A DNA stretch of 9,666 nucleotides from Dialister sp. CAG:486. GTDB lineage: Bacteria > Bacillota > Negativicutes > Veillonellales > Dialisteraceae. Under the pieces are notes generated by a model. That model was given only the letters and a program-made list of their open reading frames with translations. It ran no database searches and was not told the DNA's origin. The stretch covers positions 1-9,666 of the forward strand of contig FR879523.1 in NCBI GenBank assembly GCA_000434475.1. Reading direction: 5' to 3'. The stretch's first letter is position 1; each line of letters opens with the position of its first letter. This document shows positions 1,688 through 8,670 of this stretch, in pieces. The position numbers and the translations under genes were made by a program.

Positions 1688-2045
1688 GGGTTCAGGGCTC
1701 AGGGTTAGCCCGTAGGACGAGCTGTCCCTTGATTGTTTGTGAAAGAGGGGGAGCGGGCTCTACCGGTTCAGAGGGGGGCAGCGCATAAAAATATGGAAGC
1801 GCCGCGGAGTATTGAAATAAGCTTAAAACGCGTCCCCCCTTGGAGAAGGGGGTGCCCGAAGGGCAGGGGATAGACTGCCTCGAAGAGGCAGAATTCTGCA
1901 GAATGAGAAACAAGAACTGTTGAATAGACTAGAGTAGATAGCATGAGCCGCTATGTAGAAGGGTGCCGTTACGCGGCACATCCATCCTGCGACTTTGGTG
2001 CTCCTAATCCCTAGCCACTAATTTCTAGTCACCAGTCACTAGTCC
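1688..2045 (+). repeat. Composite intergenic repeat, copy A
   Basis: Fills almost the whole gap between the converging binding-protein and exonuclease genes. It begins with GGGTTCA, GGGCTCA and GGGTTAG (1688-1708), continues with a TTGATTG...GTGAAAG segment (about 1729-1746) shared with copies B, C and D, and contains GAAGCGCCGCGGAGTATTGAAATAA (in part, about 1797-1819) and a chain of hairpins (1835-1891). It ends with six contiguous 7-mers of CTAATCC/CTAGTCA type at 2004-2045, three bases before the exonuclease stop codon. A further palindrome, GTGCCG...CGGCAC, lies at 1963-1979. No coding signal and no clear terminator for either flanking gene is seen. Confidence 0.8.
1835..1891. repeat. 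String of three perfect short hairpins
   Basis: Three perfect inverted repeats follow each other: CCCCCTT/AAGGGGG with loop GGAG (1835-1852), GCCC/GGGC with loop GAA (1854-1864), and CTGCCTC/GAGGCAG with loop GAA (1875-1891). They lie between convergent genes and could slow polymerase in either direction, but no T-tract is present, so a terminator call is not justified. The CCCCCTT-GGAG-AAGGGGG-TGCCCGAAGGGC arrangement is a recurrent intergenic motif in several bacterial groups. Confidence 0.7.
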
Positions 2046-2048
2046 CCA

Positions 2049-2636
2049 TTATTTGAAGATCAATTTCTTCTTCATCCGATCGATGGAGAAGGTGCGCAGC
2101 GGCTGTCCCGTTTCCTTCAGAAGCTCTTTCGGAGAAGAGAGGGATCTCTCGGTCAGCGCCGCGCGTACGATGTATGCACAGGCGCGGGCATCATCCAAGG
2201 CCTGGTGGTGATGGAAGGCAAAGCCCAGTGCTTCGGCGACGGTATTCAGCTTGTGATTTTCCATATCCGGCCAGAGTTTGACGGAGAGCGGGACGGTATC
2301 GCCATAGCAAAAGTGCAGGTCGGGAAGACCGTAGGTGGCGATCGACGAGGCGAGGACGCCCATGTCGAAGCGGGCATTGTGCGCAAAGACCACCTGTCCC
2401 TCCAGACGCTCCCGGATCTCTTCGAAAAGAAGCGGGAAGGCGGGCTCCTCCGCTACGTCGGCAGGGGAGATGCTATTCACCTTCTGGCATTGGGCATCAA
2501 AATTCATGGAGAGGGGGTGGATGAGATGGTACCACTCGTCGATGACTTTTTCGCCATCGCTGGTCACGATGCCAAGGGAGCAGGCATTCGCCGGGCCCCA
2601 GTAGGCGGTTTCAAAATCGATTGCAATGTAGTTCAT
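2049..2636 (-). CDS. DEDDh-family 3'-5' exonuclease (DnaQ/PolC epsilon-like)
   Basis: Metal-dependent 3'-5' exonuclease acting on DNA or RNA ends in the cytoplasm, 195 residues. All three exonuclease motifs are present: Exo I DFE (D7, E9), Exo II HNARFD (D91) and Exo III HQALDDA (H144, D149), the DEDDh arrangement of DnaQ-type proofreading domains. The domain occupies about residues 1-160. A short basic tail (165-195, ending in KKKLIFK) has no recognisable BRCT or helicase domain, so this is a stand-alone exonuclease rather than PolC itself. The start is forced: the next Met (44) would lose Exo I. It has no Shine-Dalgarno sequence; instead (GAACCCT) repeats lie a few bases upstream, with an in-frame stop 30 bases before the ATG. 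Substrate and partner are not evident from the neighbours. Confidence 0.93.
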   Translation of the reverse strand: MNYIAIDFETAYWGPANACSLGIVTSDGEKVIDEWYHLIHPLSMNFDAQCQKVNSISPADVAEEPAFPLLFEEIRERLEGQVVFAHNARFDMGVLASSIATYGLPDLHFCYGDTVPLSVKLWPDMENHKLNTVAEALGFAFHHHQALDDARACAYIVRAALTERSLSSPKELLKETGQPLRTFSIDRMKKKLIFK

Positions 2637-2645
2637 GATGATTGA

Positions 2646-2904
2646 GGGTTCAGGGTTCAGGGTTCAGGGTTAGCCCTTGGGGCGGGGCGCCCTTTGATTG
2701 CGTGCGAAAGAGGTTCAGCGGGGGTGGTGCGGCACCAGATCCTTCGACTCTGTTCTCACTGTTCCGCCTTTACATTTTCGAACATCCGACATTTCACTCC
2801 GCTCAGGATGACGAAATGCGCCGCGGAGTATAAATAATGGAGATGCCCGAAGGTGGCATTTCAAGTCACTAGTCACTCGAGGCTCCTAATCCCTCGCCAC
2901 TTAT
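2646..2904 (+). repeat. Composite intergenic repeat, copy B
   Basis: Starts with three perfect GGGTTCA units and GGGTTAG (2646-2673), beginning nine bases upstream of the exonuclease ATG. It then carries CCCTTTGATTGCGTGCGAAAG (about 2689-2709) as in copies A, C and D, and a GATCCTTCGACTC...CCGCTCAGGATGAC segment (about 2739-2812), another motif common in bacterial spacers. A GCGCCGCGGAGTATAAATAATGG block is at 2817-2839. Copy B ends in CTAGTCA/CTAATCC-type 7-mers (about 2862-2900). The block 2816-2880 matches the reverse complement of 7470-7533 in copy F. Confidence 0.8.
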
Positions 2905-3022
2905 TCCTGTTTTCAAATATAAGGTTCGAGATATGCCGTATTCCCGTTATTGCCAAACTGAACCCTGAACCCTGAACCCTTACTGTAAGTTTTGAAAACT
3001 AATGAGCAAGAACGGTATTTTC
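2905..3022. repeat. Spacer tail with an inverted heptamer array
   Basis: After copy B comes unremarkable AT-richer sequence. At 2959-2979 there are three perfect TGAACCC units, the reverse complement of the array at 2646-2666. The two arrays therefore face each other about 290 bases apart and bound the whole exonuclease-B3/4 spacer. No terminator or promoter is evident. Confidence 0.75.
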
Positions 3023-3757
3023 TCAAATATCCGTCTCGAAGGTATGCGGTGCTTCTTCGATCCAGCCGACCTCTACCGCACGGTCGAAGGCGGACTTGAT
3101 GCGGCGGGCGAGTTCATTTCTGGCGGCGGCGACTTTCTTTCGGTTCGGCGCAAATCCGGTGATGAGGATGAGAACGTCTTCGGTCGCCGGGGTGATCTTT
3201 CCTGCCTTTTGATCTTCGGCCAGCCAGCCGGTGGTGCAGAGGTCGTCTCCGAGAGAAACGGTGACATCATCCTCTGTTTTCCTGATGGAGAGTGTCCGGC
3301 TGCGGTCGCCCATGTCGTAGGCGTGGATATCGACGTGGAATTTCAGCATGCCGGCACGCACCATGTCGAGGATCGGATTCCGGCGCGGAAGCACATCAGA
3401 GCCGGCGAGTTCATCCAGTGTCGCCGTCTTGGGGGCAGGAAGGATCTCCATGGGAGTCTCTGCCGCCTCTTCCTTTTCGAAGAGCCCCAGGTCCTTCTTG
3501 TATTCCGTAAAGGTCTTTGCCAGACCGGACGCACCAGCGATGGAGAGCTTTTTAAGGACGTTCTGATAGCGCTCGATCTCTTGGTCGGCGATATGGGGAT
3601 TCATCTTGAGGAGCAGGTTCGCCTCGGTGCAGCAGCGGCGGCGGAAGGCTTCTGCTTCCAGATTCACATCGCGGTTGTCAGCGGCGCGCAGGGCTACGAC
3701 GCCGATGCACAGGCCGGGGATGGTATCGAATAACTGATCGTCTACAGTGATTTTCAT
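3023..3757 (-). CDS. B3/4-domain-like protein (PheRS beta-subunit-like tRNA/amino-acid domain)
   Basis: A 244-residue cytoplasmic protein resembling the stand-alone B3/4 domain proteins, related to the editing domain of phenylalanyl-tRNA synthetase beta chain. Supporting features: an N-terminal PGLCIGVVALRAADNR segment (14-29), a helical middle with FTEYKKDLGL (83-92), and the family-like block VLPRRNPILDMVRAGMLKFHVDIHAYDMGD (in part, about 122-151) followed by RTLSIRKTEDDVTVSLG (154-170). The linker at 94-118 is Glu/Pro-rich. The function of stand-alone members is poorly defined; trans-editing of mischarged tRNA or amino-acid binding is possible. The ATG at 3757 is preferred over an in-frame TTG four codons earlier because GGAGG sits five bases upstream of it and the TTG overlaps that site. 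An extended -10 promoter lies 34 bases upstream. Confidence 0.72.
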   Translation of the reverse strand: MKITVDDQLFDTIPGLCIGVVALRAADNRDVNLEAEAFRRRCCTEANLLLKMNPHIADQEIERYQNVLKKLSIAGASGLAKTFTEYKKDLGLFEKEEAAETPMEILPAPKTATLDELAGSDVLPRRNPILDMVRAGMLKFHVDIHAYDMGDRSRTLSIRKTEDDVTVSLGDDLCTTGWLAEDQKAGKITPATEDVLILITGFAPNRKKVAAARNELARRIKSAFDRAVEVGWIEEAPHTFETDI

Positions 3758-3790
3758 GATTGCCTCCAAATGGGAAAATGTGTCTTCACT

Positions 3791-3799
3791 ATTATAGCA
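3791..3799 (-). promoter_or_regulatory. Extended -10 promoter for the B3/4-like gene
   Basis: Read on the minus strand, TGC-TATAAT is a perfect extended -10 element. The TATAAT ends 33 bases before the ATG, and GGAGG lies between. The sequence 14-17 bases further upstream has no convincing -35 box, fitting TG-dependent promoters. The core TATGCTATAATA also occurs before pgeF and before the DUF4931 gene. Confidence 0.75.
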
Positions 3800-3895
3800 T
3801 AGATAAAGGGCTTGGGTTGATGGGGGCGGGGTTCAGGGGCCCCTTTGTATTTAACGGAATATAGGTCAACGAGCAGTAAATCAGTTTTGCTGAAA
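3800..3895. other. Spacer, no gene seen
   Basis: Contains the upstream part of the B3/4 promoter region, one GGGTTCA-like unit followed by a GGGGCCCC palindrome (about 3830-3843), and AT-rich sequence leading into copy C. Nothing else can be supported. Confidence 0.5.
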
Positions 3896-4231
3896 GTTAG
3901 GAGTTAGGAGTTAGGAGTTAGGAGTGAAGGTACGGCGCGTCAAATTTGGAAGCGCCGTGAAATTTTATATAAACTGACGAGCAAGCGGTGATTGAAATAG
4001 CGCAGTTGGTACACTGACCATTCTGCAAGGAAGATCTCTCGGCTACGCTCGAGATGACGACGACGCGAAGCGCTATCAAAATCCTGCGGCGCTTCTATAG
4101 TTTTATGCGCCGCACCACCATTTCTCATTTCTAATTTCTCATTTCTAATTCAAACGAAGCTTTCACCCGCAATCCATGGACGGCACGCCCCGCGGGCTAA
4201 CCCTGAACCTTGAACCCTGAACCCCGAACCC
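3896..4231 (-). repeat. Composite intergenic repeat, copy C (inverted)
   Basis: Lies between divergent genes. Read on the minus strand it starts with GGGTTCG/GGGTTCA/AGGTTCA units and GGGTTAG (4231-4197), then the TTGATTG-like/GTGAAAGCTTCG segment, then four 7-mers of TAGAAAT/GAGAAAT (4147-4120), then the GAAGCGC...GCGCTTC inverted repeat (about 4094-4066), then the TCGTCATCTCGAGCGTAGC palindrome module (4058-4021). It ends in four perfect TCCTAAC units (plus strand GTTAGGA, 3896-3923). Positions 3979-4203 align with the reverse complement of 8367-8588 in copy D almost without gaps. Confidence 0.85.
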
Positions 4232-4239
4232 TTTATAAT
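4210..4239 (+). promoter_or_regulatory. Putative promoter for the pseudouridine synthase gene, -35 inside the repeat
   Basis: A perfect TATAAT (4234-4239) follows TTGAAC (4210-4215, four of six matches to TTGACA) with an 18-base spacer. The -35 candidate is formed by the last heptamer units of copy C; the -10 lies just outside. Predicted transcription would begin near 4246, about 20 bases before the AAAGGGGA ribosome binding site. Confidence 0.55.
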
Positions 4240-4279
4240 AATGACAACCAATGAAAGTCAATCGAAAGGGGAATGAATT

Positions 4280-5146
4280 TTGCAACTGGAACTCATAGTA
4301 TCGGAGGCCCAGGCGGGGCGGATGGTGAAGGACGCGGTGAAAGTGTTGCATTTGTCCGGCGGATTGTGGAAGCGGATCAAATGGAATGGGCGCGTGACGG
4401 TGAATGGCGAGGAGGTACACAATGCGCGCAGGAGAGTCGCAAAGGGCGATCGCATCGTGCTCACGTGGAGTGAGGAGAATGATATCGTCCCATCGGACAT
4501 CCCGCTCTCCATCACGTATGAGGATGAGGCGCTCCTCGTCGTGAATAAGGGGCCGGGCATGATCATCCATCCGACGGCGCGCGGCGCGCATGATACGCTG
4601 GTGAATGCGGTGGCAGGCTACTATGCGCAGCGGCGCATCGAGGCGGGCATCCATCCCATTTATCGTCTTGACCGCAATACGACGGGGCTTGTCGTGGTGG
4701 CTAAGTCAGCGAAGGGGCAGTATGACCTCTCTAAGAGCCATGACCAGATCTACCGCGAGTATCTGGCTCTCGTTTCCGGACATATGGATGAGAAGGCAGG
4801 GCGCATCGATCGCCCCATCGGACGCAGGGACGGTTCGATCGTGGAGTGGATGGTCAGGGAAGACGGCAAGCGTGCCATCACGGACTATGAGGTGCTGGGC
4901 GAGTATGAAGGGTATTCGCTGTTGAAGATCCATCTTCTGACGGGACGCACGCACCAGATCCGCGTGCATTTTGCGAGCCTCGGGCATCCGCTCTTAGGTG
5001 ATGACCTCTACGGCGGGCCCCTCGGTCTCATGACGCGGCAGGCACTTCACGCCTATACCGTCCGCTTCGCTCATCCGGTGACGGGAAGGGAAATGAGATT
5101 CACCGCTCCCGTGCCGGAGGATATGAGGAAATGGATGGAGAAATAA
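4280..5146 (+). CDS. RluA/RluD-family rRNA or tRNA pseudouridine synthase
   Basis: Isomerises specific uridines in structured RNA (usually 23S rRNA for this family) to pseudouridine. The 288 residues match the usual length. The N-terminal part (about 15-65, with KRIKWNGRVTVNG at 31-43) is an S4-like RNA-binding domain. The catalytic domain carries HPIYRLDRNTTGLVVV (125-140) with D131 the expected nucleophile, and the C-terminal GRTHQIRVHFASLGHPLLGD (222-241) is the family signature. The start is TTG: AAAGGGGA lies eight bases upstream, a TGA stop is two codons before it, and the first in-frame ATG (codon 15) would cut into the S4 domain. The target uridine cannot be told from sequence. pgeF follows after 79 bases, the same neighbour as rluD has in E. 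coli (yfiH). No terminator is seen between them, so read-through into pgeF is plausible. Confidence 0.94.
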   Translation: MQLELIVSEAQAGRMVKDAVKVLHLSGGLWKRIKWNGRVTVNGEEVHNARRRVAKGDRIVLTWSEENDIVPSDIPLSITYEDEALLVVNKGPGMIIHPTARGAHDTLVNAVAGYYAQRRIEAGIHPIYRLDRNTTGLVVVAKSAKGQYDLSKSHDQIYREYLALVSGHMDEKAGRIDRPIGRRDGSIVEWMVREDGKRAITDYEVLGEYEGYSLLKIHLLTGRTHQIRVHFASLGHPLLGDDLYGGPLGLMTRQALHAYTVRFAHPVTGREMRFTAPVPEDMRKWMEK

Positions 5147-5166
5147 AGGGCGCAGCAGGCTCTGTA

Positions 5167-5175
5167 TGCTATAAT
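5167..5175 (+). promoter_or_regulatory. Extended -10 promoter for pgeF
   Basis: TGC-TATAAT (TATAAT at 5170-5175) inside TATGCTATAATAAGAA, nearly identical to the elements before the B3/4 and DUF4931 genes. It lies 50 bases before the pgeF ATG and 20 bases after the preceding stop codon. There is no good -35 box. It would give pgeF its own transcript in addition to any read-through. Confidence 0.72.
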
Positions 5176-5225
5176 AAGAAGACATATTTTCCTTTTTATT
5201 CGCATCGAAAGGTGGCTTTGGGCTT

Positions 5226-6038
5226 ATGAAATTTATTTCCGCAGACGGGATCCTTTACATGACATTCGACTGTTATCAGGGACAGAGGGTCGTAGCGGCT
5301 GTGTCATGCCGCACTGGCGGGGTGAGTGAGCCGCCATTTTCCTCTCTGAATATGGGTTTTCATACGGGCGACGATGCGGATGCGGTGCGTGAGAACCGCC
5401 GCCGCTATTTCGAGGCACTGGGGCTTTCCGCCTCGCGCCTTGTCTCGGGGAATCAGGTGCATGGCACCTACATCTACAAGGTGACGGAGAAGGATGCCGG
5501 ACGCGGCGCACTCACGATGGAGACGGCGATCCCTGCCTGTGATGGCTTCATGACGGATGAGAAGAATATCCCGATCACGATGAATTATGCCGACTGCACG
5601 CCGCTCTTTTTCTACGATCCGGTGAAGCGGGCGATCGCGCTGTCTCATGGAGGCTGGAGGGGGACAGCCGGCAATATCGCTGCGCTCACGGTGGCGAAGA
5701 TGGAGAAGAACTATGGCTCGAAGCGGAAGAATATCCTGTGTGCGATCGGTCCGGCGATCGGACTGGAGTGCTTCGAGGTGGGGGAGGAAGTGGTAGAGGA
5801 ATTCTATAAGCTCTTCAATGAGAAGGAAATCTCGCGTCTTTCGGTCAAAAAAGCCAATGGGAAGTACCTCTTCGATCTGCACAATGCGAACCGCCGCCTT
5901 CTCGAAAAGGCGGGCATACCGGCCGGCCACATCGAAGACTGCGGGCTCTGTACCTACTGTCATGATGATCTTTTCTACTCGTATCGGAAATCCGGCGGAA
6001 AAACAGGCCGTCACATGGCGGTGATGGCGCTCGTTTGA
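5226..6038 (+). CDS. pgeF: Peptidoglycan editing factor PgeF (YfiH/LACC1 family)
   Basis: Multi-copper-oxidase-like fold enzyme of the YfiH/DUF152 family. In E. coli the protein removes L-Ser-containing mispaired peptidoglycan precursors, and relatives act as purine nucleoside phosphorylases/deaminases. The 270 residues are full length. The metal-binding triad is visible: SGNQVHG with H79, ADCTPL with C124, and SHGGWRGT with H141. AIGPAIG (173-179), the ECFEVG segment (181-186), CTYCHDDLFYSYRK (242-255) and the final GRH (261-263) are also family hallmarks. The ATG at 5226 has AAAGGTGG about ten bases upstream; a later Met at codon 12 lacks such a site. The gene has an extended -10 promoter in front and an intrinsic terminator right behind, so it can be a single transcription unit despite its link to the pseudouridine synthase gene. 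Confidence 0.95.
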   Translation: MKFISADGILYMTFDCYQGQRVVAAVSCRTGGVSEPPFSSLNMGFHTGDDADAVRENRRRYFEALGLSASRLVSGNQVHGTYIYKVTEKDAGRGALTMETAIPACDGFMTDEKNIPITMNYADCTPLFFYDPVKRAIALSHGGWRGTAGNIAALTVAKMEKNYGSKRKNILCAIGPAIGLECFEVGEEVVEEFYKLFNEKEISRLSVKKANGKYLFDLHNANRRLLEKAGIPAGHIEDCGLCTYCHDDLFYSYRKSGGKTGRHMAVMALV

Positions 6039-6050
6039 TCGGTGGAAGAT

Positions 6051-6083
6051 AAAAAGCTCACGGCTTCTGTCGTGAGCTTTTTT
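6051..6083 (+). terminator. Intrinsic terminator after pgeF
   Basis: A 12-base stem, AAAAAGCTCACG paired with CGTGAGCTTTTT, with an 8-base loop and a run of six Ts, starting 12 bases after the pgeF stop. The A-run on the left arm makes it potentially bidirectional, so it could also stop transcripts arriving from the minus-strand operon on the right. Confidence 0.93.
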
Positions 6084-6092
6084 ATTTGGGGT

Positions 6093-6369
6093 GACTAGGG
6101 ACTAGGGATTAGGGATTTGGGATTAGGAGACTAGGAGACTGGGGGACTGGGGGACTGGGGGACTGGGAGACAGCAGGCTCTCTCGTATCGTCATTGAAAG
6201 CGTTGCCGAGAAATCTCTATTGCAGAATGCCCATTGCCGCATGTGAGGCAATGGGCATCGTCTTTCCTCGGTGCATACGTGCTGATTACCGTAGTGCAGT
6301 AGAGATTCCTCGGCTGCGCTCGGAATGACGATACGGGAAAGGCGGTGTTCTCGTATCGCCCCTGAACCC
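6093..6369 (-). repeat. Composite intergenic repeat, copy E (inverted)
   Basis: Fills the space between the pgeF terminator and the 77-aa gene. Its left end is five 7-mers of GACTAGG/GATTAGG type (6093-6127), which change abruptly into five 8-mers of AGACTAGG/GGACTGGG type (6128-6167). The middle is a 152-base inverted-repeat structure (6184-6335). The right end is a single TGAACCC unit (6363-6369) one base before the 77-aa gene's stop codon. No gene or promoter was seen. Confidence 0.8.
6184..6335. repeat. MITE-like nested inverted repeat inside copy E
   Basis: Two 42-base arms, 6184-6225 and 6294-6335, are inverted copies of the CGTATCGTCATT...CGAG-AATCTCTA-TGCA module and match at 34 of 42 positions by my count. 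The 68-base centre contains a second, perfect 12-base palindrome (ATGCCCATTGCC / GGCAATGGGCAT, 6227-6258, 8-base loop). No open reading frame of note lies inside. It could be a non-autonomous mobile element or two palindromic repeats inserted head to head. Confidence 0.7.
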
Positions 6370-6370
6370 T

Positions 6371-6604
6371 TCATCCCATCGTATTCTTCCCGAAGACGGG
6401 GTGACTGCAGGGCCGAAGGCTTCGTTTTTCGATGAGGGAGAGGGCTTCCTGCATATCGACATCATGGCGTTCTTTTCCTGTCTCGTAGACGAGCATGGGA
6501 GAGGCGGCATCCAGCTCGCTGGCGGGAAGGTAGATGTATTCCTGCATGTGCGGGTCGCCGTAGATGAAGCCGGCGAGAAGTTTGCTTTCGGCAAGTCTAT
6601 GCAT
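6371..6604 (-). CDS. Unrecognised 77-residue protein coupled to the metallophosphoesterase
   Basis: No family recognised. The 77 residues are mixed polar and hydrophobic without a signal peptide or membrane segment. Visible features are an N-terminal helix-like LAESKLLAGF, a MQEYIYLPASELD stretch, and an acidic/basic ERHDVDMQEALSLIEKRSL helix. There are no paired cysteines or catalytic motifs. The ATG at 6604 is chosen because GGAGG lies six bases upstream; an in-frame ATG six codons earlier lacks a site of its own. It overlaps the metallophosphoesterase gene by eight bases (ATGCATAG, where TAG is the upstream stop), the arrangement expected for translational coupling. The clear ribosome binding site and overlap argue that it is a real gene. 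It may be an accessory or regulatory subunit, but this is inference from position only. Confidence 0.7.
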   Translation of the reverse strand: MHRLAESKLLAGFIYGDPHMQEYIYLPASELDAASPMLVYETGKERHDVDMQEALSLIEKRSLRPCSHPVFGKNTMG

Positions 6605-7313
6605 GAGGCGCCTCCAGATCACAGATGAAGTATGGCTTGAAGTCCAGATAGTCCGAGCTCGTCAGGCAAAGCGGAACGCCCAGGAGGGAATCCGGCAGAT
6701 TTTTGAAATTCGGCGCGCCGTGGATGTGGCCATAGAGGCAGAGGTCTGCGCCGCCGGCGGCGATGATCTCCATCATGTGCGAAGGCCGCCGCATTTCATC
6801 GAAGGGCGGGTAGTGCAGGATCGCGATGATCCGGTCTGCCTTCATCTGCTTTGCCAGGGCGAGCGAGCGCTCCATGCGCCCTTCTTCGCGCAGGATGATG
6901 GACTTGTCGGTGCCTTCTTTATATGTTTTTGCCGTCTCGGAGATCCATCCGCGCGTACCGGCGAGCGCTACATTTCCGACCTGAATGGCGGAGTTGTGAA
7001 TAAATTCGAAGGCGCCATGCGTCATGGCGGTCATCTTCGTGACGGTGGACCACCAGAAGTCGTGGTTGCCGCGGACGATGATCTTACGTCCCGGGAGCGT
7101 GCCAAGCATGGTGAGGTCGGAGATGGCGCTCTCCATGCTCATTGCCCAGGAGAGGTCGCCTGCCATGATGACGGCATCGTCTTCGCGGATCGTCTCCTTC
7201 CATGCATTCACGATCTTTTCCCGGTGGTTCTTCCAGTTCTCTCCGAATATATCCATGGGCTTCGTTGGCGGATCTCCGGAGAGATGAAAATCACTGAAGG
7301 CATATAGTTTCAT
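6597..7313 (-). CDS. Calcineurin-like metallophosphoesterase
   Basis: Predicted cytoplasmic two-metal phosphohydrolase, 238 residues. The complete motif set of the superfamily is present: DFH (D8, H10), GDLSW (D53), RGNHD (N83, H84), HYPPF (H167) and GHIHG (H196, H198). A Trp/Phe-rich DFWWSTV follows the GNHD motif (85-91). The substrate (phosphomonoester, diester or cyclic nucleotide) cannot be deduced. There is no signal peptide or membrane segment. The ATG is preceded by GAGG with a seven-base spacing. It is the first gene of a two-gene minus-strand operon with the overlapping 77-aa gene. No promoter is recognised upstream, where the 7-mer array of copy F begins about 25 bases before the ATG. 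The DUF4931 gene further upstream is in the same direction but 250 bases away. Confidence 0.95.
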   Translation of the reverse strand: MKLYAFSDFHLSGDPPTKPMDIFGENWKNHREKIVNAWKETIREDDAVIMAGDLSWAMSMESAISDLTMLGTLPGRKIIVRGNHDFWWSTVTKMTAMTHGAFEFIHNSAIQVGNVALAGTRGWISETAKTYKEGTDKSIILREEGRMERSLALAKQMKADRIIAILHYPPFDEMRRPSHMMEIIAAGGADLCLYGHIHGAPNFKNLPDSLLGVPLCLTSSDYLDFKPYFICDLEAPHA

Positions 7314-7338
7314 AGGGTAACCTCGTTTAGGGATGGGG

Positions 7339-7553
7339 GATTAGTGACTAGTGACTGGGGGATATCAGACTCTCGTATCGTCATTTCGAGCGAAGCGAGA
7401 AATCTTCCTTGCAGACCGACAAATGAAGGATGTGTGAAAGCAAGGATAAGTGACTGGGAATTAAGAGACGCGAGTGAGTGGTGACTTGAATACTACTTTC
7501 GGGCATCGCCTCATATATATTCGCGGCGAAGCCGCCACCACAACCTTGAACCC
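7339..7553 (-). repeat. Composite intergenic repeat, copy F (inverted)
   Basis: Fills the gap between the DUF4931 stop and the metallophosphoesterase start. The left end has three 7-mers GATTAGT, GACTAGT and GACTGGG (7339-7359). Next comes a CGTATCGTCATTTCGAGCG/AGCGAGAAATCTTCC palindrome module (7374-7410). Then 7470-7533 matches the reverse complement of copy B (2816-2880), including a GCGGCTTCGCCGC hairpin (about 7522-7534). It ends with TGAACCC (7547-7553), ten bases from the DUF4931 stop codon. No terminator for DUF4931 or promoter for the next gene was recognised here. Confidence 0.78.
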
Positions 7554-7563
7554 ACAACCTTTT

Positions 7564-8325
7564 TTATCCAAAATACTTTTCTGATTGCAATGTCTCGATG
7601 ATCCGCTTCTTGCTCGTTTCGTCCATCACATTTGTGATGCGGTAGCCCATGTAGAGAGGGCTTGCTGTGAAGCGGGGGAAGATCTTGGCGTGGATCTGAT
7701 TTCTCAGATGATAAAAGAAAATGTTGTAGCTCGAGCAGCGGATAGGGAAGTCGGAGAGGACGTAGCGCGCGAGGGTCTGTATGGTGTCAGCAAAGCCGTC
7801 ACTTCCTCCCTCCTTCTTCAGTGTCACGTTCAGCTCGCCGACGCCGCTCAAGGGGTACTCTGCGAGCGAAGCGTAGCAGTCGTCATTTTCATAGATGACC
7901 TCGCCCAGGAAATTTTCGCCCTGCAGATTGTCGCGGTAGTCGTACTCTTCAAGCCCGATGATCTGCGAGTGCGGGTGGCGCTGTGAGCCGCCGGAGGTGG
8001 GGCCGAAGTTGCGGAAGTAGATGACGGAGCGGAAACGCTTGTCACTTTCCATTTCCTGCCACTTGGCAAGGCCGAAGGCGATCACCTCGTGGAGCTTCTC
8101 GGGCGCATAGGTGCTGAGCTCGCTGTCGTGGTCGGCTGTCTCGACGATGACGGTGGGGACAGTCTTCTCAAAGACGGGATACTTGTTCATGAGCCAGATG
8201 ATATCGTCTTTCCGGTCAAGAATGTGCGTGAGATTTTCAGGATGGCAGAAAGGGCAGACTTTTTGTGTGCCGGAATGAGGCTTCTCGCTGCCGATGGATA
8301 TATTGAATGTGATAGGATTGGTCAT
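7564..8325 (-). CDS. DUF4931 protein, galactose-1-phosphate uridylyltransferase-like (HIT superfamily)
   Basis: A 253-residue protein with the layout of a GalT/HIT nucleotidyltransferase or hydrolase. It has a zinc-knuckle-like CPFCHPE (C24, C27), IIWLMNKYPVF (42-52) equivalent to the NKYPAL region of GalT, IVETADHD (60-67) equivalent to the GalT VETPEHD region, and RHPHSQIIG (116-124) matching the catalytic HPHGQ loop with H117 and H119 present. Near the C terminus HAKIFPRFTASPLYMGYRI (212-230) resembles the second metal/substrate region. It is shorter than GalT (about 350), so a different nucleotide-linked substrate is likely. The ATG at 8325 is preferred over a GTG three codons earlier, because GAGGTG, six bases upstream, includes that GTG. 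An extended -10 promoter is 28 bases upstream. No sugar-pathway genes are adjacent. Confidence 0.87.
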   Translation of the reverse strand: MTNPITFNISIGSEKPHSGTQKVCPFCHPENLTHILDRKDDIIWLMNKYPVFEKTVPTVIVETADHDSELSTYAPEKLHEVIAFGLAKWQEMESDKRFRSVIYFRNFGPTSGGSQRHPHSQIIGLEEYDYRDNLQGENFLGEVIYENDDCYASLAEYPLSGVGELNVTLKKEGGSDGFADTIQTLARYVLSDFPIRCSSYNIFFYHLRNQIHAKIFPRFTASPLYMGYRITNVMDETSKKRIIETLQSEKYFG

Positions 8326-8352
8326 GGTGTACACCTCATCTTTCCGATTCTT

Positions 8353-8361
8353 ATTATAGCA
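8353..8361 (-). promoter_or_regulatory. Extended -10 promoter for the DUF4931 gene
   Basis: Minus-strand TGC-TATAAT within TATGCTATAATAAGAAT, nearly identical to the pgeF and B3/4 elements. The TATAAT ends 27 bases before the ATG, giving a short leader that just accommodates the GATGAGGTG ribosome binding site. The composite repeat copy D begins only five bases upstream of the TG motif, so any -35 region lies inside the repeat; none is recognisable. Confidence 0.75.
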
Positions 8362-8366
8362 TAGAA

Positions 8367-8644
8367 GGGTTAGTCCGTTGGGCGTGCTGCCTCTTGATTG
8401 CGGATGAAAGCTTCGCTTGAATGAGAAATTAGAAATGAGAAATGCGAAATGGTGGGGCGGCGCAGAAAAAAGAAGCGCCGCAGAATTTTGATAGCGCTTC
8501 GCGCTGTCGGCACCGGAAGCGTTGGCGAGAGATCTTCCTTGCAGAACGGTCAGCGCATCAATTGCACTATTTCAAACATCGCATGCTCCTAATCCCTAGC
8601 TACTAATCCCTAGTCCCTGTTCACCAGTCACTAGTCACGAATCC
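8367..8644 (+). repeat. Composite intergenic repeat, copy D
   Basis: Occupies the divergent gap between the DUF4931 promoter and the promoter of the last gene. It opens with GGGTTAG (8367-8373), then CTCTTGATTGCGGATGAAAG (8391-8410), four 7-mers of GAGAAAT/TAGAAAT type (8423-8450), the GAAGCGC...GCGCTTC inverted repeat (8472-8500), an AGCGC-TTC-GCGCT hairpin (8493-8505), and a degenerate palindrome module with GAGAGATCTTCCTTGCAGAA (about 8528-8548). It closes with eight contiguous 7-mers of CTAATCC/CTAGTCA type (8589-8644). It aligns with the reverse complement of copy C over 8367-8588. Confidence 0.85.
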
Positions 8645-8670
8645 CTTTTCATGATATTTCACTTCTTTAC

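What the first reader, a model, noticed from the sequence alone, without database searches (positions are those of the whole stretch)
1688..8644. One composite repeat with fixed polarity and two different heptamer-array ends occupies six intergenic gaps
Copies A (1688-2045, +), B (2646-2904, +), C (3896-4231, -), E (6093-6369, -), F (7339-7553, -) and D (8367-8644, +) share the same order of parts: GGGTTCA-type 7-mers and/or GGGTTAG at one end, GC-rich palindromic modules in the middle, and CTAATCC/CTAGTCA/CTCCTAA-type 7-mers at the other end. Orientation is independent of the neighbouring genes. The ends lie close to functional edges: three bases from the exonuclease stop, nine from its start, one from the 77-aa stop, and five from the TG motif of the DUF4931 promoter. 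This suggests an element, or a targeted repeat-building process, that fills gaps without damaging genes. Period-7 tandem repeats recall cyanobacterial STRR sequences, but two distinct arrays bounding a palindromic core is not something I recognise as a named family.
Basis: partly seen in the sequence, partly recalled or inferred. Interest (0 to 1): 0.8.

Follow-up and report, generated by a model that had tools for sequence, protein, structure and literature searches.

The report
Inward repeat arrays filling gene gaps
In a Dialister-like bacterium, all six gene gaps longer than 100 bases in this stretch carry a patchwork of short (mostly seven-letter) tandem repeats whose G-richer strand reads inward from the genes, plus hairpin-forming DNA; it likely spreads as tiny non-coding mobile pieces, and related patchworks in sister species could help explain why seven-letter repeats are so common in bacteria.

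Summary
The repeats are real: 97 windows in the gaps match themselves at a 7-base lag, against none in 6,939 coding bases or in shuffled gaps. The part order and polarity of copies A-D recur once in another Dialister genome (L116). But it is not one fixed element: E and F lack the GGGTTCA module, gap 2 holds an unlisted reversed GGGTTCA array (2958-2980), and no second whole copy was found in six relatives. The better invariant is that the G-richer strand of the arrays reads inward from gene edges: 10 of 10 runs here and 80 of 118 intergenic arrays of three relatives. Xanthomonas and Nostoc heptamer arrays do the same (PMC4692102), so this is a new variant of a known, unexplained kind. New here: in genome G006, arrays of different units end at G[GT]GAAGG followed by hairpins of many stem sequences, and unit cores recur at periods 7, 8 and 9. 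Spread as small foldback-like elements is inferred. Y1 transposase and reverse transcriptase genes are each found in only one of six relatives, so the mover is unknown. Sparing of genes needs only selection.

The parts
1688..1745 (+). Copy A left end: GGGTTCA/GGGCTCA/GGGTTAG array and GGGTTAGCCC..GGAC-GAGCT-GTCC..TTGATTG..GAAAG module
   Evidence: aligned with B, C, D and L116
1778..1805 (+). Copy A GC hairpin GCAGCGC..GCGCCGC
2001..2047 (-). Copy A right end: CTAATCC/CTAGCCA/CTAGTCA array; its G-richer strand is minus and reads inward
2646..2710 (+). Copy B left end: (GGGTTCA)3-GGGTTAG array and module
2842..2893 (+). Copy B GATGCCCGAAGGTGGCATTTCA hairpin followed by CTAGTCA/CTAATCC units
   Evidence: the hairpin is also in F and L116
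2958..2980 (-).
3895..3969 (+). Copy C: (AGTTAGG)4 array joined through GTGAAGGT to hairpin ACGGCGC..GCGCCGT and AAATTTTATA
   Evidence: (z -3.6)
4018..4059 (-). Copy C REP-like palindrome CGTCATCTCGAGCGTAGCCGAGAGATCT
4074..4150 (-). Copy C: AGAAATT/AGAAATG array joined through GGTGGTG to hairpin GCGGCGC..GCGCCGC
   Evidence: (z -3.9)
4160..4231 (-). Copy C GGGTTCA array and GGGTTAG module
6091..6171 (+). Copy E array: GGGACTA/GGGATTA heptamers then GGGGGACT octamers
6189..6330 (.). Copy E: two REP-like palindromes facing each other (6189-6217, 6302-6330) around hairpin 6227-6258
7337..7359 (+). Copy F array GGGATTAGTGACTAGTGACTGGG
7379..7415 (+). Copy F REP-like palindrome CGTCATTTCGAGCGAAGCGAGAAATCT
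7465..7541 (-). Copy F GATGCCCGAAAG-type hairpin with flanks (shared with B and L116)
8367..8410 (+). Copy D GGGTTAG module with a single array unit
8420..8493 (+). Copy D: AATGAGA array joined through GGTG to hairpin GCGGCGC..GCGCCGC and AGAATTTT
   Evidence: (z -4.2)
8514..8549 (+). Copy D partial REP-like stretch
8586..8645 (-). Copy D right array CTAATCC/CTAGTCC/CTAGTCA; its G-richer strand is minus and reads inward

Best explanation
The six gaps hold a modular non-coding repeat mosaic, in which short (mainly 7-base) arrays whose G-richer strand reads inward from the gene edges surround GC-rich hairpins and REP-like palindromes, and which likely spreads as small non-autonomous, foldback-like elements moved by an enzyme supplied in trans and is then likely reshaped by repeat slippage and recombination. 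Shown: inward orientation, modular make-up, the same composite order in a second species, arrays joined to hairpins through GKGAAGG in G006 and in one half of copy C (through GGTG in the other half of C and in D), reuse of one array type with several hairpins and the reverse in G006, and different spacer contents between sister species in the gaps compared. Inferred: movement as elements, the missing enzyme, slippage as the source of unit number, recombination between arrays as the source of reassortment, and purifying selection as the reason that genes are spared.
For: Inward reading: window 6 of 6 TRF arrays and 10 of 10 runs at a looser threshold, in all six gaps (three gaps have runs at both ends, three have one run each); G001 14/20, G002 28/41, G006 38/57 (80/118, p=1.4e-4). 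Composite order in L116. G006 whole genome: 59 matches of GAGRTTTCG-N8-38-GAAGG against 0 control matches, 50 of 59 with length 7n+1 (by eye one of the 50 and two others look like chance hits in genes); unit types TTCGTGR and TGCGGGR alternate and mix between the same flanks and a few arrays pass to 9-base units. Junction GKGAAGG followed by a hairpin (stem 5 or more) in 113/241 places, mirror side 18, random positions 247/1994, control words GGAAGKG 9/105 and AAGGGKG 14/75; 93 have stems of 6 or more with 56 distinct arms. Self-match at lag 7 is 0.451 on the 5' side of 127 junction sites and 0.282 on the 3' side. Spacer contents differ between G001 and G002 in the gaps compared. Unfilled B34-exonuclease junction in three relatives.
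Against: No mover found: PF01797 in 1 of 6 genomes and not beside the modules, PF00078 in 1 of 6. No target duplication could be defined. No second whole composite in six relatives (for G002 40 of 72 candidates were scored). The 3' hairpin bias is clear only in G006 (56/91 against 8/91, control 12%); G001 has 12 against 9 of 39 and G002 18 against 15 of 53 (controls 13% and 16%), so there hairpins are near both sides. In the window only 3 of 15 array edges have a strong 3' hairpin, and E left has its strongest structure on the 5' side (z -4.9). Left and right arrays of 15 facing pairs in G006 match weakly (76 of 2000 shuffles as good; 6 back-to-back pairs 10 of 2000; 36 same-direction pairs 705 of 2000), and in the window the ends differ, unlike true terminal inverted repeats. 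With my crude ORF calls a good share of arrays in relatives fall inside called ORFs (outside: period 7 G001 8/10, G002 9/14, G006 44/61; period 9 9/16, 17/32, 7/19), as do 29 of 93 G006 junction hairpins.
Confidence: 0.5

Rival explanations
1. The arrays arise in place by polymerase slippage where replication stalls at hairpins near gene edges; no element moves, and similar arrays arise by convergence.
For: Whole-number unit lengths and mixed arrays; the array sits at the hairpin foot in G006; a slippage idea for heptamers is cited in PMC4692102 (discussion section read).
Against: The same 5' flank and array types are dispersed over some 50 places in G006 and the composite order is shared across species; stalling would not be expected to favour one side of the hairpin by motif.
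Confidence: 0.25
2. REP/REPIN elements mobilised by a REP-associated Y1 transposase (RAYT), with the arrays as passengers.
For: A short tag (GGTG/GGTA) at the foot of a hairpin and some inverted pairs resemble REPINs.
Against: Y1 in 1 of 6 genomes, with no GKGAAGG site in the two loci fetched; stems very diverse for one recognised hairpin.
Confidence: 0.07
3. The arrays and hairpins are kept for function, as G-quadruplex or terminator-like insulators at gene edges.
For: B and E arrays have four GGG tracts (sequence); T-run after the hairpin in 57/93 junction hairpins (stem 6 or more) against 41/333 other hairpins (stem 7 or more) in the G006 sample; inward placement like the arrays of PMC4692102.
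Against: Little relation to gene direction: upstream gene on the same strand 37, opposite 24 among the G006 junction hairpins with a called upstream gene (29 of 93 lay inside called ORFs, 3 had none). Several unit families lack GGG (TTCGTGA, AGAAATG, AGTTATC), yet 13 of 15 TTCGTG-type arrays have the same 36-base length as most others (read from the table).
Confidence: 0.13
4. Target-primed reverse transcription of a short RNA with a hairpin and repeat tail, as in LINE/SINE tails (recalled).
For: Hairpin next to a short tandem tail.
Against: Reverse transcriptase in only 1 of 6 genomes (G002), none found in G006 or G001, which have the arrays.
Confidence: 0.03

Closest known systems
G-rich intergenic heptamer arrays of Xanthomonas and Nostoc (PMC4692102; sections 10, 13, 16 and passages read)
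   Same: Period 7; GGGANTN-type units in E, F and the right ends of A and D; intergenic; G-strand reading inward from the nearer ORF; convergent pairs (reported there for Xanthomonas); length and sequence variation between sister species
   Different: Dialister has many other unit families, periods 8 and 9, and hairpin and REP-like modules inside; a hairpin-junction rule is not described in the parts read
CGTC-tagged REPs (PMC3733652; passages from abstract and text seen)
   Same: CGTC tag, AT-rich first stem bases, facing dimers (copy E), no dedicated transposase known
   Different: Contiguous stem about 5 rather than 8-9 bp, tail CTT/CTC rather than CCA; the five phyla listed there do not include Firmicutes
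REPIN/RAYT systems (PMC3733652 passages; PMC3116915 listing and abstract start only)
   Same: Tag plus hairpin, some inverted pairs, intergenic
   Different: No RAYT found in 5 of 6 relatives, no GTAG tag, stems not conserved
Foldback transposons (recalled; PMC4079207 and PMC3573991 seen only in the listing)
   Same: Inverted ends made of short tandem repeats around a core
   Different: Ends differ in sequence in the window; no transposase; far shorter
Cyanobacterial STRR heptamers (recalled) and TAACTGA repeats (PMC4679880, passages seen)
   Same: Intergenic heptamer arrays
   Different: Different units; no inward hairpin composite described in the passages seen

Membership tests
Xanthomonas/Nostoc-type G-rich heptamer arrays | Tandem GGGANTN or GGGGAYT units | tested here: inconclusive
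   Met by E left (GGGACTA GGGATTA GGGATTT GGGATTA) and some units of F and the A/D right ends; not met by GGGTTCA, AGTTAGG, AGAAATG arrays
Xanthomonas/Nostoc-type G-rich heptamer arrays | Intergenic | tested here: met
   Window: 97 lag-7 windows in gaps, 0 in 6,939 coding bases. Less clean in relatives under crude ORF calls
Xanthomonas/Nostoc-type G-rich heptamer arrays | G-strand reads inward from the nearer ORF; convergent pairs | tested here: met
   10 of 10 runs in the window, 80/118 in three relatives; convergent runs in three window gaps
Xanthomonas/Nostoc-type G-rich heptamer arrays | G-quadruplex formation in vitro | not testable with these tools
   Only the GGG spacing in B and E can be read
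REPIN/RAYT | GTAG tag and conserved hairpin | tested here: not met
   Junction is GKGAAGG, mostly then T; 56 distinct arms among 93
REPIN/RAYT | RAYT gene flanked by the repeats | tested here: not met
   PF01797 in 1 of 6 relatives, no GKGAAGG in its two loci; the window's own genome is not held
CGTC REP | CGTC tag | tested here: met
   C, E (both), F
CGTC REP | 8-9 bp stem, 4-5 nt loop, CCA tail | tested here: not met
   Read from the sequence: about 5 contiguous pairs (ATTTC/GAAAT), tail CTT or CTC; one search reports 5 pairs for copy C
Foldback/MITE | Matching terminal inverted repeats | tested here: inconclusive
   G006 facing pairs 76/2000 shuffles as good; window ends differ
Foldback/MITE | Target-site duplication and empty site | tested here: inconclusive
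   Unfilled B34-exonuclease junction in L001-L003 but too diverged to read a duplication
Cyanobacterial STRR | Named STRR units | not tested
   Unit names recalled only

The most novel reading that the evidence does not exclude
Dialister carries an array-building activity that lays down short units at the 5' foot of a tagged hairpin: each unit is a fixed core (GGGTTC, AGKGA or CGKGR) plus an elastic spacer, giving periods 7, 8 or 9, with one preferred array length whether or not the units have G-runs. The inward GGGANTN arrays of Xanthomonas and Nostoc would be products of the same kind of machinery in other phyla.
Probability: 0.07. Interest if true: 0.85.

Novelty: new variant of a known kind. 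Interest (0 to 1): 0.5.

Why it matters
What the inward G-rich heptamer arrays do is stated as open in PMC4692102, which also cites only a hypothesis for why heptamers are over-represented in bacteria; how CGTC-tagged REPs spread without a dedicated transposase is open in PMC3733652. Dialister offers both kinds of sequence in one set of compact genomes, with unit cores recurring at periods 7, 8 and 9 and with array and hairpin modules in many combinations. That lets slippage, element insertion and function be told apart by comparing strains.

Tried and rejected
Viral contigs: the CTAATCC-type pattern hit 9 stretches, all one kind of unrelated phage coding sequence; the GATGCCCGAA pattern hit none. 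Phages and plasmids by blastn with the copy D region: none. Rfam at gathering thresholds: none. Y1 transposase and reverse transcriptase as common movers: rejected. Terminators chosen for neighbouring genes: orientation too neutral; consensus terminator and promoter counts in the window are near shuffled expectation (9 against 7.1; 5 against 4.5). G-quadruplex as the reason for array length: arrays without G-runs have the same length. Strong hairpins 3' of every window array: not found, 3 of 15 edges (the 15 edges were defined by hand). A motif test of unit cores by TRF consensus was mixed: GKGA 14/19 against 4.0 in shuffled units (G006 period 9), 17/61 against 5.3 (G006 period 7), 6/8 against 1.8 (G001 period 8), but 0/5 in the window, 2/10 against 1.3 (G001 period 7), 4/14 against 3.2 and 1/4 against 0.8 (G002 periods 7 and 8), and below expectation in period 9 of G001 (0/16) and G002 (2/32); GGTT was 15/16 and 27/32 in the last two and 3/5 in the window. 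One control (GGKAAGG, 83/182) was faulty because GGGAAGG fits both patterns; I do not use it.

Sampling and rows dropped: the 13 G006 stretches came from 8 contigs picked because they held heptamer or element matches, so their density is inflated; searched whole genomes. Arrays counted needed 2.4 or more copies and TRF score 36 or more, and periods 7, 8, 9, 14, 16 or 18 for the geometry tests. One search kept 6/6, 20/39, 41/53 and 57/91 arrays (window, G001, G002, G006), those with called genes on both sides and not inside a called ORF; ORF calling was crude. In one search, with slightly different rules, the G006 hairpin counts were 59 against 9 of 91.
Full report
What the window is. Pfam assigns a solute-binding protein, an RNase T exonuclease, a B3/4-like protein (below cut-off), an RluA-type pseudouridine synthase, a laccase-like oxidoreductase, a metallophosphoesterase, DUF4931 and a second solute-binding protein; the short ORF at 6371-6622 has no match. 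The exonuclease is 68% identical to Dialister sp. UBA1703 and D. succinatiphilus, so I treat the window as Dialister-like. No genome is held for it. Six relatives were searched as G001-G006, and twelve genomes (those six included) at family level.

Observation. In the window, period-7 arrays lie in the gaps and not in genes: 97 windows of 14 bases match at lag 7 in the gaps, 0 in 6,939 coding bases, and shuffles give at most 0. The repeat finder shows the shared parts between copies, and alignment shows the GGGTTAG..TTGATTG..GAAAG module in A, B, C and D. Its short stem changes on both sides (GGAC/GTCC, GGGC/GCCC, with G-T intermediates), as read from that alignment. E and F do not have this module. 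The gap of copy B carries a further GGGTTCA array on the other strand at 2958-2980.

Same order elsewhere. A blastn search with copy D found L081/L116 in G001. There a 7-base GGTTCAA/GGGTTCA array, the GGGTTAG-type module, GGTGGCGGCTTCGCCGC, the GATGCCCGAAAGCGGCATTTC hairpin (shared with B and F) and the CTAATCC/CTAGTCA array follow in the window's order and polarity. Searching 126 bases of that copy against six genomes found itself and only partial matches. So the composite is real but rare in these relatives, and its parts are more common than the whole.

Orientation. At a looser threshold one search lists ten array runs in the six gaps longer than 100 bases, and all ten read inward from the nearer gene on their G-richer strand: three gaps have runs at both ends, facing each other, and three have one run each. 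In relatives the G-richer strand reads inward in 14/20 (G001), 28/41 (G002) and 38/57 (G006) intergenic arrays (together 80/118, p=1.4e-4). The paper on Xanthomonas and Nostoc heptamers reports the same placement in all three species and 70 and 75 convergent pairs in the two xanthomonads (PMC4692102, sections 10, 13, 16 read). This is the strongest link to a known kind. In the relatives a good share of arrays fall inside my crude ORF calls, which I take to be partly spurious ORFs but did not test.

Arrays and hairpins. In the G006 sample, arrays of different units (GGGGTGC, TTCGTGA, GGATTTC, GGGATTA, CGGGANNNN and others) end at G[GT]GAAGG and a GC hairpin. GKGAAGG is followed by a hairpin in 113 of 241 places against 247 of 1,994 random positions; the 93 hairpins with stems of six or more have 56 distinct arms. 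Pairing is kept while sequence is not. A hairpin lies within 25 bases 3' of the G-strand in 56 of 91 arrays and 5' in 8 of 91, with 12% in control windows. GKGAAGGTGNCGCC occurs 77 times in whole G006 with no control match, and 0 to 3 times in each of 11 other family genomes. In the window, copies C (both halves) and D show an array directly followed by GGT(A/G) and a strong hairpin (z -3.6, -3.9, -4.2); the other 12 array edges tested do not. In G001 and G002 hairpins are near both sides of arrays and the side bias is absent.

Array turnover. A whole-genome pattern search of G006 shows 59 matches between GAGRTTTCG and GAAGG; 50 have length 7n+1, 38 of them 36 bases. Between the same flanks the unit is TTCGTGR in some, TGCGGGR in others, mixed in a few, and in a few passes to 9-base CGGGNNNNN units. 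The core GGGTTC has period 7 here and mostly period 9 in G001 and G002; AGTGA has period 7 here and 8 in G001 (and sequence). G001 and G002, 95.6% identical over an 8.8 kb conserved stretch, carry different arrays and hairpins in the gaps I compared.

Gene edges. B34 and the exonuclease align with 12-13 bases between them in L001-L003, and lie 386 bases apart here; the filling separated two adjacent genes without touching their frames. Selection against damaging insertions explains this without targeting.

Mechanism. I favour small non-autonomous elements, foldback-like because both ends carry inward arrays, with later slippage and recombination. The mover is not identified: Y1 transposase in G006 only and not next to the modules, reverse transcriptase in G002 only. 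CGTC-tagged REPs have the same gap in knowledge (PMC3733652 passages). Slippage in place is the main rival.

Novelty. Searches of the paper library with Dialister plus repeat terms and heptamer plus hairpin, REP or foldback terms showed, among the papers listed (lists were capped), no title or abstract start describing these Dialister repeats or the array-hairpin junction; most subscription papers are not held.

Noticed in passing
2637-2650: The relative L001 has AGGAGG before the exonuclease start; here the bases before the ATG are ACCCTCAATCATC, with no Shine-Dalgarno-like sequence, so the filling may have altered its expression. L002 also lacks AGGAGG at that place.
   Followed up: partly
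4210-4239: A promoter-like match upstream of the RluA gene takes its TTGAAC from the C-strand of the GGGTTCA array and its TATAAT from outside; total promoter-like matches are near shuffled expectation.
   Followed up: partly
8351-8367: The DUF4931 gene keeps an extended -10 (TG-n-TATAAT on minus) directly next to copy D, so its -35 region lies inside the repeat.
   Followed up: no
L191, L192, L193 (G002): Three reverse transcriptase genes with the same score and a 469-aa open frame, probably a group II intron in several copies.
   Followed up: no
L001:8860-9130: One gap strings together at least five different short arrays (GCTGTCC, AGCAGTA, GTCGGAA, CACTGTCC, CACTAGTA).
   Followed up: partly
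L170:3887-5852 versus L107:6285-6290: A stretch of about 2 kb present in G001 and absent in G002 at a precise site between conserved sequence.
   Followed up: no
L116:7962-8180 versus other G001 contigs: The GGGTTC array next to the GGGTTAG module has period 7, while those next to GGTGGTGGCGGC hairpins in the same genome have period 9, so period seems to follow the module rather than the species.
   Followed up: partly
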